Notes under the pieces: generated by a model
Databases searched by the model: none
Told to the model about the DNA's origin: nothing
What the model saw: only the letters and a program-made list of their open reading frames with translations
Assembly: GCA_021030905.1 (NCBI GenBank)
Contig: JAGFMI010000010.1
Location: 62,001 to 126,000 of the forward strand
Length of the DNA: 64,000 bases
Direction: 5' to 3'
Origin: Pyrenula massariospora
Taxonomy: Eukaryota; Ascomycota; Eurotiomycetes; Pyrenulales; Pyrenulaceae
Made by a program: the position numbers and the translations under genes
In this document: piece after piece, positions 52,253 to 62,676 of the stretch
How the letters are laid out: each line of letters opens with the position of its first letter
How positions within the stretch are numbered: the first letter of the stretch is position 1

Positions 52253-53275
52253 CTACTGCTTAACGTCCACCGCTGAGCCATATATTGACTTCATTATTAG
52301 CTTACCGTACTCACCAACCGTAATACCGGGGTAAATGTCAAATCCGTTTGTGTTGTATTTGCCAATGTTCGGCCTGTCGCCAATAGGTGCAAGTACGGTT
52401 TCGGGGGCTGCTCTCCCGAAATATGCCATCGTTTGCCGTGCACGATCATGAGGGACTCCATCAAAGGTCACCCGATGCATGGTTGCTTTGAGCTGACCTC
52501 CACTCCAAAAGCACAAGGAGTCTCCAAGGTTGACCAAGATACAGTTCTCGATACACGGTGCCTTCACCCACTGTCCAGTTGGAGACTCAATCTCGAGCCC
52601 AGGGCTATCCTGAAAGAGCAAAGTCACCGAGTCGGAGTCTGCGTGCGGCGACATCCTCGTACCTTTAGGCTGCTCGTGTCTCGCTGGGTACATCAGCATT
52701 CTCAGCGAGTTCCCATCTCCCGCGTCCTCAGGATGAGCCCTGGCGAAGAAATTTCGATCCGGAAGATCCAGAGCTAATGCGAAGCATTGCAACAATTGGA
52801 TGACAAGCTCATAACAAGAATGCTTGAATTTTTCAAGCTTCTCAAACTTGTCTCGCCAAAATGGCGGTAATGCCTTGACGCTCTGCTGCAATTCGCCGGG
52901 TATACCTCCAAACCACATCGACATTTTGTCGTCCTTGCGGCGATCCGAGAGGGCGCCACTGTACCCCATGGATTTGCTATTGATTGGCCAAGGCGCCTTC
53001 TGGTCTTCGTCGAGGGCGAAAAACTCCTTACCCCAAGACATCATCTCTTCAATATCGTGGGAGGGGATGGGATGGCCTTTTAGGAGCAGAAACCCCCATT
53101 TTGCAGCTGCAGAGGTGATTTCCCGCGCGATAGATAGCTGATCATCCGCTTCTGAGATCTTTGAGACGTCTATTATGGGGAAATCTAAGTCATGGTCTGT
53201 TCTCAGTCTTTCCGGCGGAGGCGGGCCATTCTGCGGCTGAGGGCTGTGTCGAGCAAGATAATCCGCGTAGAACAT
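52253..53275 (-). CDS. 2-oxoglutarate/Fe(II)-dependent oxygenase (isopenicillin-N-synthase-like), 340 aa
   Basis: Single exon. The N-terminal DIOX_N-type part reads DFPIIDVSKIS and AAAKWGFLLLKGHPI. The double-stranded beta-helix core has the iron triad His211-x-Asp213 (MSPHADSDSVTLL) and His267 (ATMHRVTF), followed by Arg280 in RARQTMAYF (the Arg-x-Ser/Thr that binds 2-oxoglutarate). The family hydroxylates, desaturates or closes rings on small molecules using O2 and 2-oxoglutarate. It is the left-most gene of the candidate secondary-metabolite cluster and lies on the same strand as the P450 1.2 kb away. Its membership in the cluster is inferred from position. Primary-metabolism members of the family exist too. 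Confidence 0.9.
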   Translation of the reverse strand: MFYADYLARHSPQPQNGPPPPERLRTDHDLDFPIIDVSKISEADDQLSIAREITSAAAKWGFLLLKGHPIPSHDIEEMMSWGKEFFALDEDQKAPWPINSKSMGYSGALSDRRKDDKMSMWFGGIPGELQQSVKALPPFWRDKFEKLEKFKHSCYELVIQLLQCFALALDLPDRNFFARAHPEDAGDGNSLRMLMYPARHEQPKGTRMSPHADSDSVTLLFQDSPGLEIESPTGQWVKAPCIENCILVNLGDSLCFWSGGQLKATMHRVTFDGVPHDRARQTMAYFGRAAPETVLAPIGDRPNIGKYNTNGFDIYPGITVGEYGKLIMKSIYGSAVDVKQ

Positions 53276-54463
53276 ATTTATAGTGTTGCTGGCGCAATAT
53301 GACCCAAATCAACGTTCTGACATTCACCTAAATGATCAACCCGTCGCCTTGAGGTAGCACGAAACATGATGCGGACACGATTTCTGATATTGCTCACAAG
53401 TTGGGCTTATCGCGATATGAGAGATAAAGACCCAAAACCTGCTCTTGGCATCGACCCCAGCCCTGTCGTCGTGGGAGCCTGTTACAATCTGCAGTAGCTC
53501 AACGATAATTATTCATACGCAGTCCCATGTTGGACCGACACGAAGATAGTCAATTTGATGGTGAGACGATCATTTATGCTCACAAAGAACTATATTTCCA
53601 CCGAGAAAAAGGGAAGGCCATTTGTAAGAATCCAAGGATCCTCATCCTCCTATTGCGATAGCATTCACCATCCAGTCCCTGCAACCGAATCACCAGCCAA
53701 CTTTTGCTCTACGTGACCAACGTCGGCACACCTCATTCCATCGGCTCTAGCCTTCGAGCATCGCGTTGCCGGCCGCATTCCGTATGCGGCGTTTTGGGCT
53801 GGATGGGACCGTGAACGCCACCAAGGTTTTGCGTCAGGGGCACCGGGTGGGTACGTCGCGTTCTACGACCCAAAAGGTCGTCCCTGGGAGTCTCGTAGCC
53901 ATACGGGAGGAGTGGATCTCAAATTAAGTCCGTCCTACTGTCCTGTTGATCATTTGCTAGAGCCTGACTGACAGGTTGCGGTCGAGAGACTATCGACTGC
54001 TGTTCCACCTCTGAAAGGATCGTGAGACCTGTGGAAAGATGGCGCCGCCTGGCCCCTCGGGCCGCCCGTGGGTGTACTAGGCGCGGATCTACCCCGCTTG
54101 TGTAACTCTCTGGCGTCTTAAATCAACCTTGTAAGTCTAAGGATTCCAACGACTAAGAATTTCCCTTATCCGATTCGAACCTCGATCCTAAGCCGTGAAC
54201 ATCGACAATAGATCGCCACTCTTATACAAAACTTCTTTCCACTTTTGGGTTTGAAGGCGGGGACGCAGAATGAGGTTTGGGGCTAACAGTGACAGAGAAC
54301 GACACGAGATCCACGTGGCGGACATCGTTCCGAGATGGTGAAAGATAGGTGCATGAGAGAGAGCGGAAGTGCGTTATAGTCCGCAGACTCTTATCGGTAG
54401 AGGAAAAGAGCATCTCAAGATCATGTCTACGACGCCTTCCACTGCTGAGCAAGCGATCTACGA
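53276..54463. other. Intergenic region between oxygenase and P450 genes
   Basis: 1.2 kb. Contains the oxygenase promoter. A G+C-rich, ATG-less open stretch at about 53755-53970 (+) reads as protein-like but matches nothing I know. Confidence 0.35.
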
Positions 54464-60119: not shown

Positions 60120-60847
60120 TAGACTTCCCCTGTGTTTATCTCAATTGGAATAGTAAATCACTCTGAATACGGCGTAGATGACATAGATCAAAATTACCTC
60201 CAATGAGGTAAGGTCATGCATAAGAGGTGTTGAAATCTCTTTTACGAGGCTAAGGCAAAAGATAAGTGATGATGTAGTCTTCAATCACCCCCCCCCCCCC
60301 TCGCTAGATCAGTTGGAAGTGCTGGTTCCATTAGAGCCTCTAATTGTGGACATTGCCAGTTCAAATTTGTCTATACTAGGAGCGCTAGTTTCGATGCAGT
60401 ATAAGGCGCTCCACCTATTATGCAGGACGGCACGGCTGCGTCGAGGCTCACATCCTCCAAGCGAGCCAGCGATACCGCAACAGCTGCCAATTGGCTATTT
60501 TGAGCCCGAGAAGGGTCTCCAACAAAAGAAAATCAGCCTATGAATCAATCAAAATGCATAGTTGCTGAGTCGGAAAAGTTCTGAAATGCGCTTGGATCCC
60601 GTTCTTCAGTTTCAGCCCTTTACTTGCTCTCTTTCAAGTTCGACAGTATTGGGTAAAGTAGCTACTTGCGTATTGAACCCTCTAGAAAAGATCTACATTT
60701 AACCGATCATATTCGCTCAATTTTATAAGAGCAATCTAGAGTTCGAACCGGTTCACTTTGCCATACCTAAGCCTTCCCCTTCCCGATCCCACGATTCCCT
60801 TACAAACCTTGGTACGAAGTTGCCCTGACACTAAAACCATCGCCGCT
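60120..60847. promoter_or_regulatory. Intergenic region with halogenase promoter
   Basis: 0.73 kb between two tandem plus-strand genes of the candidate cluster. Contains a poly-C tract and the palindrome GAACCGGTTC at 60745-60754, about 100 bases before the halogenase start. Confidence 0.45.
60288..60300 (+). repeat. Poly-C tract (13 C)
   Basis: A run of 13 C residues. Such runs are prone to length errors in sequencing; it is non-coding here. Confidence 0.9.
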
Positions 60848-62676
60848 ATGGAGATTCCTGAGAAATGCACTGTTCTTGTCGTAGGCGGAGGTCCGGGAGG
60901 ATCATATACATCATCTGTACTTGCTCGTGAAGGCATTGATACTGTGCTAGTTGAAGCAGATAAAATGCCTAGGTGCGGGCCCATCATATTCTCATGCCCT
61001 GGCTACCTTTGCTGAGATTTCGCGTCCACGATCGGCTGATTTTTGACAGATATCACATCGGCGAAAGCATGCTACCTTCAATTCGTCACTATCTGAAGTT
61101 CATTGACTTAGATTCGGAGTTCGACAAATGCGGTTTCACAAAGAAAGTTGGGGCGGCCTTCAAGTTCAACCCCCAGAACCGCGAGGGCTGTAAGTGCATC
61201 ACTGATTGCCGATATGAAGATGCTGACAGTCATCAAAGTTACCGATTTCATCTTGGCCGGCGGCTCCGAAAACTATGCTTGGAACGTGGTGCGTTCTCAA
61301 GCAGACGAGCTCATGTTCCGGCACGCTGCCAAGAGCGGTGCCAAGACTTTTGAAGGTGTCAAAGTCACCGCAGTCCAGTTTGCCGAAAGCTCTACGATAA
61401 CCACGAATGGGACTGTGAACCGGATTGCGAATGGTGTTCCAAATGGCACCGAGAAAAATATTAGAAACGGGGTCGCTCATGAGCCTGAACGTCCGATTTC
61501 AGCCTCCTGGACTAGGAAGAGTGATGGTGCCAGCGGCACTATTGCATTCGACTTCATTGTCGATGCAACCGGGCGCGCTGGTTTATTGAACACCAGATAC
61601 CTCAAGGACCGCCGCTATAATCCGGGGCTTAAGAACATCGCCAACTGGGCCTATTTCAACGGCGCGGGGATATACGCGGAGGGAACTACACGTGCAAACG
61701 CGCCAATCTTCGAAGCACTGCGAGGTCTGCGTCATGTTCTACCTTTTCCTATCTGCTCAGAAACTAATACCCTGCTTTTCTAGACGAAAGTGGATGGGCT
61801 TGGTTTATCCCTTTGCACGATGGCACCGTCTCCGTTGGCGTTGTGCAGAACCAAGCAATCGCCACTAAGAAAAAGGTTGCAGCTGAATCCACGCAGAAAT
61901 TTTATGAGGAGTCCTTGAACCTAGTTCCTATGGTAAAGGAACTCCTCCAGGACGCCAAGCAAACAACAGAGGTTCAATCGGCTTCAGACTTTTCGTACCA
62001 TGCGAGCAAGTACGCATTCTCTAATGCACGTATTGTTGGCGACGCGGGTTGTTTTATTGACCCTTTCTTTTCCTCGGGCGTCCACCTTGCCCTCACCGGC
62101 GGTCTCTCAGCAGGGACTACTATTGCAGCCAGCATCAGAGGCGATTGCAGTGAGGCTGCAGCGGCACAGTGGCATTCAAACAAGATTCGGGAGGGCTACG
62201 CACGCTTCTTACTTGTCGTTCTAAGCGCATACAAGCAAATGCGAAACCAGAACGACCCTATATTGTCCGACTTCAACGAAGACAATTTCGATAGAGCGTT
62301 TACTTTCTTCAAGCCAAGTTCGCTGCCCTAGTTGACCCTCAAATTCGAGCTATGAACTAACTTTGTTACAGTCATTCAAGGAACAGCGGATGCCACCAGC
62401 AAGTTGACGCAAGCAGAGTTCTCGCAGAGCATTGACTTCATAAGGATGGCCTTCTCTCCTGGACCGAACAATCCCTTGAATACGATTCCGGCGGACGTGG
62501 TTGACGCCTTGCCTCCCATGCCAGTGATTTCACCTGAGGACATGGAAGCTCTAGCGGCCTTTCGAGATCGCAGCGATGACGTATTAGGAATGGGAGGTTT
62601 TACTACCGACGTCGTCGATGGATTTCTGCCCAAGCTGGAGACGGGGAAGTTGACACTGATACCTGCTCAAGCCTAA
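60848..62676 (+). CDS. Flavin-dependent halogenase (fungal phenol-halogenase type), 529 aa
   Basis: Exons 60848-60972, 61050-61189, 61239-61724, 61784-62317 and 62372-62676 give 530 codons. The FAD fold opens [21 protein letters not shown]. Lysines 73-74 ([11 protein letters not shown]) sit where the catalytic Lys of fungal halogenases such as RadH lies, as far as I recall. Trp255-Ala-Trp-Phe-Ile-Pro260 ([13 protein letters not shown]) is the WxWxIP halogenase signature. [17 protein letters not shown] near residue 337 is the second FAD motif. The enzyme would use FADH2, O2 and chloride or bromide to halogenate an electron-rich, probably phenolic ring. An in-frame ATG at 60758 adds 30 residues but the family starts close to the FAD motif. 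The last donor is weak (GTTCGC), but the join gives FFKPIIQGTAD, as the family requires. An Asn/Gly-rich insert at about 145-170 is unusual. Confidence 0.93.

What the first reader, a model, noticed from the sequence alone, without database searches (positions are those of the whole stretch)
52253..62676. Candidate secondary-metabolite cluster: A-T-TE synthetase plus flavin halogenase, P450 and 2-oxoglutarate oxygenase
Seen: four adjacent genes with intact catalytic motifs, two of them head-to-head. Known: A-T-TE enzymes dimerise aryl-pyruvic acids, and WxWxIP flavin enzymes halogenate aromatic rings. Inference: the product is a halogenated aryl-quinone, furanone or butyrolactone (pulvinic-acid- or terphenyl-like) oxidised by the P450 and the oxygenase. 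I know of no described cluster with exactly this gene set, though I cannot search. No transporter, regulator or methyltransferase is in view, so the cluster may continue past the right edge.
Basis: partly seen in the sequence, partly recalled or inferred. Interest (0 to 1): 0.8.

Follow-up and report, generated by a model that had tools for sequence, protein, structure and literature searches.

The report
Fungal halogenase and aryl-dimer synthetase cluster
A fungal genome carries a small group of neighbouring genes that looks able to join two tyrosine-derived building blocks and add chlorine or bromine to the product, a gene combination I did not find described, though the product is unproven.

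Summary
The four genes are there, at the stated coordinates and with intact catalytic motifs, in an unnamed ascomycete-like genome: 2-oxoglutarate oxygenase, P450, A-T-TE NRPS-like synthetase and RadH-type flavin halogenase. P450 and synthetase diverge from a 1.08-kb shared promoter. Genes recognised in the 20 kb beyond the right edge look unrelated or housekeeping, apart from one remote monooxygenase.

Genome searches found two full-length A-T-TE synthetases and six RadH-type halogenase loci, so this adjacency is unlikely to be chance. The synthetase lies in an Asp-type thioesterase clade, across the tree from the polyporic-acid synthetase AcyN (Asn). Its 13-member subclade has a polar residue at A-domain code position 5 in 12, against Ile/Val in 22 of the 23 surrounding sequences. 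With RadH's published need for a free phenol, this favours a 4-hydroxyphenylpyruvate dimer, more likely furanone/butenolide than terphenylquinone, halogenated ortho to the phenol. This product is inferred, not shown.

The 2-OG oxygenase is the weak member: widespread family, no excess of shared promoter words, no contig length shared with the synthetase's relatives. Ten searches of an open-access library gave no A-T-TE plus halogenase cluster that I recognised. It is a plausible new combination of known parts.

The parts
52253..53275 (-). Fe(II)/2-oxoglutarate oxygenase (IPNS-like), 340 aa, intronless; doubtful cluster member
   Evidence: PF14226, PF03171; HAD, MHRV, RQT; best relatives 80% unnamed, 78% Pyrenula ochraceoflavens, then 66% and below in many fungi; nearest solved: thymine dioxygenase 5c3p
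54464..56166 (-). Cytochrome P450, 502 aa, 3 exons (56166-56098, 55960-54884, 54826-54464 incl. stop)
   Evidence: PF00067 E 5e-66; FSTGPRNCIG, ESLR; nearest solved P450s are CYP3A, so no function is assigned
56167..57245 (.). 1079-bp divergent (shared) promoter region of P450 and synthetase
   Evidence: shares 8 10-mers with the halogenase upstream region (shuffle mean 1.6; 0 of 300 reach 8)
57246..60119 (+). Non-reducing NRPS-like synthetase A-T-TE, 957 aa: A domain ~51-420 (code position 5 = Thr320), T domain Ser633, TE triad Ser765/Asp792/His932
60120..60847 (.). Halogenase upstream region
   Evidence: shares 46 8-mers and 8 10-mers with the divergent promoter; the overlapping chunk is the highest of 169 window chunks; local alignment not significant
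60848..62676 (+). RadH-type flavin-dependent halogenase, 529 aa, 5 exons (60848-60972, 61050-61189, 61239-61724, 61784-62317, 62372-62676 incl. stop)
   Evidence: PF04820; RadH 8gu0 E 5e-159, residues 1-524; K74, [15 protein letters not shown]; tree

Best explanation
This is a compact secondary-metabolite cluster with a core of three genes (P450, A-T-TE synthetase, halogenase) and possibly the 2-OG oxygenase. Steps: (1) an aromatic alpha-keto acid, most likely 4-hydroxyphenylpyruvate made elsewhere from tyrosine, is adenylated by the A domain and held on the T domain; (2) the thioesterase couples two units and releases a diaryl product, more likely a furanone/butenolide (aspulvinone- or butyrolactone-like) or dioxolanone than a terphenylquinone; (3) the RadH-type halogenase, via FADH2/O2 and a Lys74-bound halogenating species, chlorinates or brominates the ring ortho to a free phenol; (4) the P450 hydroxylates or couples the scaffold. 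Gene presence, domains and motifs are shown. The substrate, ring type, order of steps and product are inferred. My probabilities: the three-gene core acts in one pathway 0.7; substrate is 4-hydroxyphenylpyruvate 0.5; non-quinone core 0.55; the 2-OG oxygenase belongs 0.4.
For: Domains and motifs intact. The halogenase matches RadH over residues 1-524 of 529, with K74, D325 and F328 equivalents conserved. PMC5637929 (passages) reports that a phenolic OH is a prerequisite, that K74 and D325 are essential, and that halogenation is ortho. Rarity: 2 full-length A-T-TE and 6 halogenase loci found in the genome. Divergent promoter; the halogenase upstream region shares with it 46 8-mers, 19 9-mers and 8 10-mers (shuffle means 23, 6.2, 1.6; reached by 0, 1 and 0 of 300). 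Substrate: in the 13-member clade, code position 5 is N in 6, T in 4, Q in 2, L in 1, while the 23 other members of the enclosing 36-clade have I 19, V 3, T 1. PMC10316625 (section 11) ties Ile/Val to phenylpyruvate and Asn to 4-hydroxyphenylpyruvate. Core type: the deepest split of the 122-sequence tree puts the window enzyme in a 42-member group with Asp in 41 of 41 readable TE triads; AcyN (polyporic acid) is in the 80-member group with Asn in 67.
Against: Position 5 in the window enzyme is Thr, neither published signature; Thr also occurs in 2 of the 80 sequences on the AcyN side, and PMC10316625 found that position 5 contributes to, but does not strictly determine, specificity. My placing of position 5 rests on alignment to AcyN. 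No characterised furanone or butyrolactone synthetase sequence was in hand, so Asp-type = furanone is inference; 13 of 80 in the other group also have Asp. No expression or metabolite data. The synthetase's close relatives (71-55%) and the halogenase's (66-62%) come from different fungi as far as named, and gene order in relatives was not readable. The shared promoter words have no significant local alignment, and the single shared 11-mer is not significant (84 of 300 shuffles).
Confidence: 0.55

Rival explanations
1. Same cluster, but the synthetase makes a phenylpyruvate-derived terphenylquinone (polyporic-acid type); the P450 first adds the phenol (as MO6277 does for ascocorynin) and the halogenase then acts on it.
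For: A P450 is divergently paired with the synthetase. PMC9047271 (section 13) describes a monooxygenase hydroxylating polyporic acid in trans. Thr at position 5 is not the 4-hydroxyphenylpyruvate signature Asn.
Against: TE triad Asp and tree side opposite to AcyN; polar position 5 in 12 of 13 clade members.
Confidence: 0.2
2. The halogenase is an independent gene (or serves a polyketide elsewhere) that only happens to lie downstream of the synthetase; the true unit is synthetase + P450.
For: The five other halogenase loci are on contigs without a full-length A-T-TE match. Two of them have polyketide synthase pieces within the flanks read: C30 (AT, ACP, TE) and C33 (SAT and KS ORFs). The halogenase's tree neighbours (Apodospora, Coniella, Seiridium, Hymenoscyphus, Lachnellula and others) are in genera that do not appear by name among the 120 listed A-T-TE hits (of 988; most listed ones are unnamed). 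Fungal tailoring enzymes can act in trans (PMC9047271 section 13; PMC5523082 passages).
Against: Chance adjacency about 0.4% (estimate); excess shared promoter words; no polyketide synthase recognised by eye among the long ORFs of the window or the 20 kb to its right.
Confidence: 0.2
3. The locus is a decayed or silent relic that makes nothing.
For: No regulator, transporter or aminotransferase recognised inside the cluster; small size.
Against: Four intact reading frames with splice sites and catalytic motifs; substrate-supply and tailoring genes of this class are often unclustered (PMC8403587 section 23; PMC9047271 section 13).
Confidence: 0.05

Closest known systems
Fungal non-reducing NRPS-like (A-T-TE) pathways: ascocorynin (AcyN), allantofuranone (alf), aspulvinone/butyrolactone of Aspergillus terreus
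   Same: Same tri-domain synthetase architecture; divergent-promoter pairing with a tailoring gene is described for btyA (PMC9047271 section 13); 42% identity to AcyN.
   Different: Neighbours named in the sections and passages I read are DAHP synthase, transcription factor, dehydrogenase, aminotransferase, O-methyltransferase, prenyltransferase, ring-cleavage dioxygenase, tyrosinase and P450s; none is a halogenase. TE Asp instead of AcyN's Asn.
RadH / Rdc2-type phenol halogenases
   Same: Near full-length match to RadH (E 5e-159), K74/D325/F328 and WxWxIP conserved.
   Different: RadH serves radicicol, whose polyketide nature I recall; this one sits next to an A-T-TE synthetase.
Halogenated diaryl butenolides (rubrolides and the A. 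terreus butenolide)
   Same: A tyrosine-derived dimer with ring halogens is what this gene set predicts; PMC7401252 (passages) says the biosynthesis of the marine polyaromatic butenolides had not been formally investigated and cites tyrosine dimerisation plus halogenation/methylation in A. terreus.
   Different: No product is known for this fungus; the link is by predicted chemistry only.

Membership tests
Non-reducing NRPS-like synthetase (A-T-TE) | A, T and TE domains in that order, no C domain | tested here: met
   PF00501 51-420, PF00550 620-671, PF00975 695-797, no condensation-domain match; 988 homologues at E <= 1e-10
Non-reducing NRPS-like synthetase (A-T-TE) | Intact pantetheine Ser and TE triad | tested here: met
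   DYGITS (Ser633), Ser765/Asp792/His932
Terphenylquinone (polyporic acid) synthetase | Ile/Val at A-domain code position 5 (PMC10316625) and grouping with AcyN | tested here: not met
   Thr320; opposite side of the deepest tree split
Atromentin-type (4-hydroxyphenylpyruvate) synthetase | Asn at code position 5 | tested here: inconclusive
   Thr in the window enzyme; Asn in 6 of 13 clade members; position 5 does not strictly determine substrate (PMC10316625)
RadH-type phenol halogenase | GxGxxG, WxWxIP, Fx.Px.Sx.G, catalytic Lys74 and Asp325 | tested here: met
   features named in PMC5637929 and PMC10377541 passages
RadH-type phenol halogenase | Halogenating activity on a free phenol | not testable with these tools
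   needs enzyme assay
Secondary-metabolite gene cluster | Co-regulated genes | tested here: inconclusive
   shared promoter and k-mer excess for synthetase/P450/halogenase; none for the 2-OG oxygenase; no expression data
Secondary-metabolite gene cluster | Gene set conserved together in relatives | tested here: inconclusive
   contig lengths of the three hit lists compared (119, 120 and 120 values): one shared value synthetase/halogenase (8713), none synthetase/oxygenase, one halogenase/oxygenase (1890, too short for both genes)

The most novel reading that the evidence does not exclude
A dedicated fungal pathway to halogenated diaryl butenolides/furanones (rubrolide- or chloro-aspulvinone-like), in which an Asp-type A-T-TE synthetase with an unusual Thr-coded A domain hands a 4-hydroxyphenylpyruvate dimer to a RadH-type halogenase, or accepts a pre-halogenated 4-hydroxyphenylpyruvate from it: to my knowledge the first genetically defined A-T-TE/halogenase partnership.
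Probability: 0.3. Interest if true: 0.6.

Novelty: new variant of a known kind. Interest (0 to 1): 0.42.

Why it matters
Every enzyme family here is known; the combination is what is new to me. If correct it gives a gene set to test for halogenated aryl-butenolide-type metabolites, a class for which PMC7401252 (passages, 2020) knew of no formal biosynthesis study of the marine members. It would also put a RadH-type phenol halogenase to work on alpha-keto-acid dimers. The Thr/Asn/Gln variation at A-domain position 5 within one clade is a natural experiment on substrate choice.

Tried and rejected
Cluster continuing to the right: not supported after reading 20 kb. A PF01494 monooxygenase 4.8 kb past the halogenase, beyond two other genes, stays a remote possibility. 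Ten kb to the left of the window (L011) was fetched but not analysed.

Own-genome duplicate of the cluster: not found. The second A-T-TE (C27) has no halogenase match on its contig.

Halogenase as a recent duplicate of its best paralogue (C10): not supported, it groups with other fungi's enzymes.

Promoter homology by duplication: no significant alignment (92 and 104 of 200 shuffles reach the score), although sharing of 8- to 10-mers is high. Other region pairs tested at 9-mers showed no excess (97, 79, 13, 27 and 77 of 100 shuffles reach them). The motif TTGGCAGCTG (3 in the window, all at 50.2-60.5 kb) was chosen after the fact, and TTGGCAGCTGC occurs 36 times in the genome.

Contig-length comparison as a synteny test: weak, because metagenome proteins are probably called without introns (my inference) and the halogenase has four. 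The shared value 8713 (a 42% synthetase hit and a 53% Seirophora lacunosa halogenase hit, from different sources) was not resolved.

Naming the species: not possible, no fungal genome collection was at hand.

First 2-OG trees used the C11 paralogue in the wrong strand or frame; the corrected tree is.

No structure was predicted; RadH is already solved and a model would not settle substrate or product.

Papers: ten searches of an open-access library; I looked at listings, and at passages or sections of 13 papers. None of that showed an A-T-TE plus halogenase cluster. Listings were capped in some searches (20 of 4,658; 12 of 18), and subscription papers are mostly not held. PMC9144378 (review of fungal halogenation, passages) had no hit for terphenyl, pulvin, butenolide or furanone.
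Full report
What is there. Intron-bearing genes and the named homologues suggest a filamentous ascomycete (inference). The four genes lie where the finding put them: 2-OG oxygenase (-), P450 (-), A-T-TE synthetase (+), halogenase (+). Splicing at consensus sites gives proteins of 340, 502, 957 and 529 aa with the expected Pfam domains and intact catalytic motifs. P450 and synthetase start codons face away from each other across 1079 bp.

Boundaries. To the left the next large gene is a P-type Ca2+-ATPase (45647-49333). 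To the right, C1:126001-146000 was read. In order: a gene with a flavokinase domain starting near 63396, a GNAT acetyltransferase, a PF01494 FAD monooxygenase, dynactin p62, a mitochondrial carrier about 9 kb past the window edge and a methyltransferase-domain ORF about 19 kb past it, running off the stretch read; two long ORFs between them match no Pfam family. Not every ORF was scanned. The carrier and the methyltransferase lie beyond dynactin p62, so I do not count them in the cluster; no regulator was recognised there.

Is the grouping more than chance? The genome searches found two full-length A-T-TE genes (window; C27, 40% identity) and six RadH-type halogenase loci (window, C10, C18, C30, C31, C33). 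Of the five other halogenases, two have polyketide synthase pieces in the flanks read: C30, an ORF with AT, ACP and TE domains; C33, ORFs with SAT and KS domains. Neighbours of the other three were not scanned with Pfam. With about 11,000 genes (estimate) the chance of a halogenase within two genes of either synthetase is about 0.4%. P450-like (102 matching stretches) and 2-OG-oxygenase-like (20 matching stretches) sequences are common, so their presence adds less.

Regulation. The region upstream of the halogenase shares 46 8-mers, 19 9-mers and 8 10-mers with the P450/synthetase promoter; dinucleotide shuffles average 23, 6.2 and 1.6, and 0, 1 and 0 of 300 reach the observed numbers; at 11-mers (1 shared) there is no excess, 84 of 300. 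The chunk overlapping it is the highest of 169 window chunks for 8- and 10-mers. There is no significant alignment, so this reads as shared short elements rather than duplication. The 2-OG oxygenase promoter shows no excess with either. Several pairs and word lengths were tried, so I treat this as moderate support for a three-gene core.

The halogenase. RadH (PDB 8gu0) matches over residues 1-524 (E 5e-159). Lys74 and the FIDPFF segment holding RadH Asp325 and Phe328 are conserved. PMC5637929 (passages) reports that Lys74 and Asp325 are essential, that a phenolic hydroxyl is a prerequisite and that halogenation is ortho to it; it describes fungal enzymes of this kind as acting independently of carrier proteins. 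In a tree of 126 sequences the window enzyme groups with Apodospora, Coniella, Seiridium and others (12-member clade, support 0.91), not with its C10 paralogue.

The synthetase. Closest relatives are two unnamed proteins (71, 69%), a Protoblastenia rupestris MAG protein (64%) and Clonostachys byssicola (55%) (120 listed of 988). In a tree of 122 sequences it sits with the two unnamed ones (support 1.0) inside a 13-member clade (1.0). PMC10316625 (section 11) links A-domain code position 5 to substrate: Ile/Val for phenylpyruvate, Asn for 4-hydroxyphenylpyruvate, contributing but not decisive. I placed that position at Thr320 by alignment; AcyN has Ile there, as expected of a polyporic acid synthetase. 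The 13-member clade has N 6, T 4, Q 2, L 1; the other 23 members of the enclosing 36-member clade have I 19, V 3, T 1. A move from aliphatic to polar at this position fits a hydroxylated substrate, and a hydroxylated ring is what the halogenase would need. These two independent lines are the heart of the argument.

Ring type. The deepest split of the midpoint-rooted tree separates 42 sequences with Asp in 41 of 41 readable TE triads (one lacks the region; the window enzyme is here) from 80 sequences with Asn in 67 and Asp in 13 (AcyN, with Asn, is here). PMC8403587 (section 23 part 1) states that furanone, quinone or dioxolanone formation depends on the TE triad, without giving residues. I infer, and do not show, that the window enzyme is not of the AcyN quinone type. 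Sequences of known furanone or butyrolactone synthetases were not available.

The 2-OG oxygenase. Its relatives number 137 at E <= 1e-10 (120 listed): 80% (unnamed), 78% (Pyrenula ochraceoflavens), then 66% and below in many fungi, among them Coleophoma, Exophiala, Cladophialophora and Zasmidium. A paralogue on C11 (55%) falls near it in the tree (6-member clade, support 0.85). It may be a mere neighbour.

Conservation. Contig lengths of the three hit lists (119, 120 and 120 values) share one value between synthetase and halogenase (8713), none between synthetase and oxygenase, and one between halogenase and oxygenase (1890, too short to hold both). The 8713 pair, a 42% synthetase hit and a 53% Seirophora lacunosa halogenase hit from different sources, may be chance and was not resolved. 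This suggests a patchy cluster, but the test is weak because metagenome gene calls probably miss intron-bearing genes.

Literature. Ten searches led me to work on A-T-TE pathways (PMC9047271, PMC12105029, PMC10316625, PMC9603100, PMC8403587, PMC5523082) and fungal halogenases (PMC5637929, PMC10377541, PMC9144378); I read outlines, named sections or passages, not whole texts. None of what I read pairs them. PMC7401252 (passages) notes that the biosynthesis of the marine polyaromatic butenolides had not been formally investigated and cites isotope work in A. terreus on tyrosine dimerisation followed by halogenation/methylation. That is the product class I would look for first.

Verdict. It is a plausible new combination of known parts.

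Noticed in passing
window 63396-64000 continuing to L009:1138: The gene right next to the FAD-dependent halogenase carries a flavokinase domain (PF01687, 50.8 bits). The genome search for this family listed only C29, so its count is a lower bound. Whether the domain is active or the gene belongs to the cluster is open.
   Followed up: partly
L013 (C27:724135-729897): The only other full-length A-T-TE match found in the genome (40% identity) has Gly at code position 5 and Asn in the TE triad, so it probably makes something different.
   Followed up: partly
L034-L043 (C10, C30, C31, C33, C18): Five further RadH-type halogenase loci in one 37.8-Mb genome; C30 and C33 have polyketide synthase pieces in the flanks, and the pieced-together C18 copy holds three in-frame stops.
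   Followed up: partly
window 50264, 56448, 60481: TTGGCAGCTG (an E-box-like CAGCTG core, recalled) occurs three times in the window, all within 50.2-60.5 kb; 0 of 100 shuffles have three. Chosen after the fact.
   Followed up: partly
window 60288-60300: A run of 13 C bases in the synthetase-halogenase intergenic region, a possible slippage or sequencing weak point.
   Followed up: no
window 11265-12530 (-): A bZIP/DUF3425 transcription-factor-like gene about 40 kb left of the cluster; no link to the cluster is known.
   Followed up: no
L009:3490-4740 (C1:129490-130740): A PF01494 FAD monooxygenase 4.8 kb beyond the halogenase, separated by two genes.
   Followed up: partly
hit lists, contig length 8713: One contig length is shared by a 42% synthetase hit (P0101) and a Seirophora lacunosa halogenase hit (P0189); it could be chance or a second synthetase-halogenase neighbourhood.
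   Followed up: no
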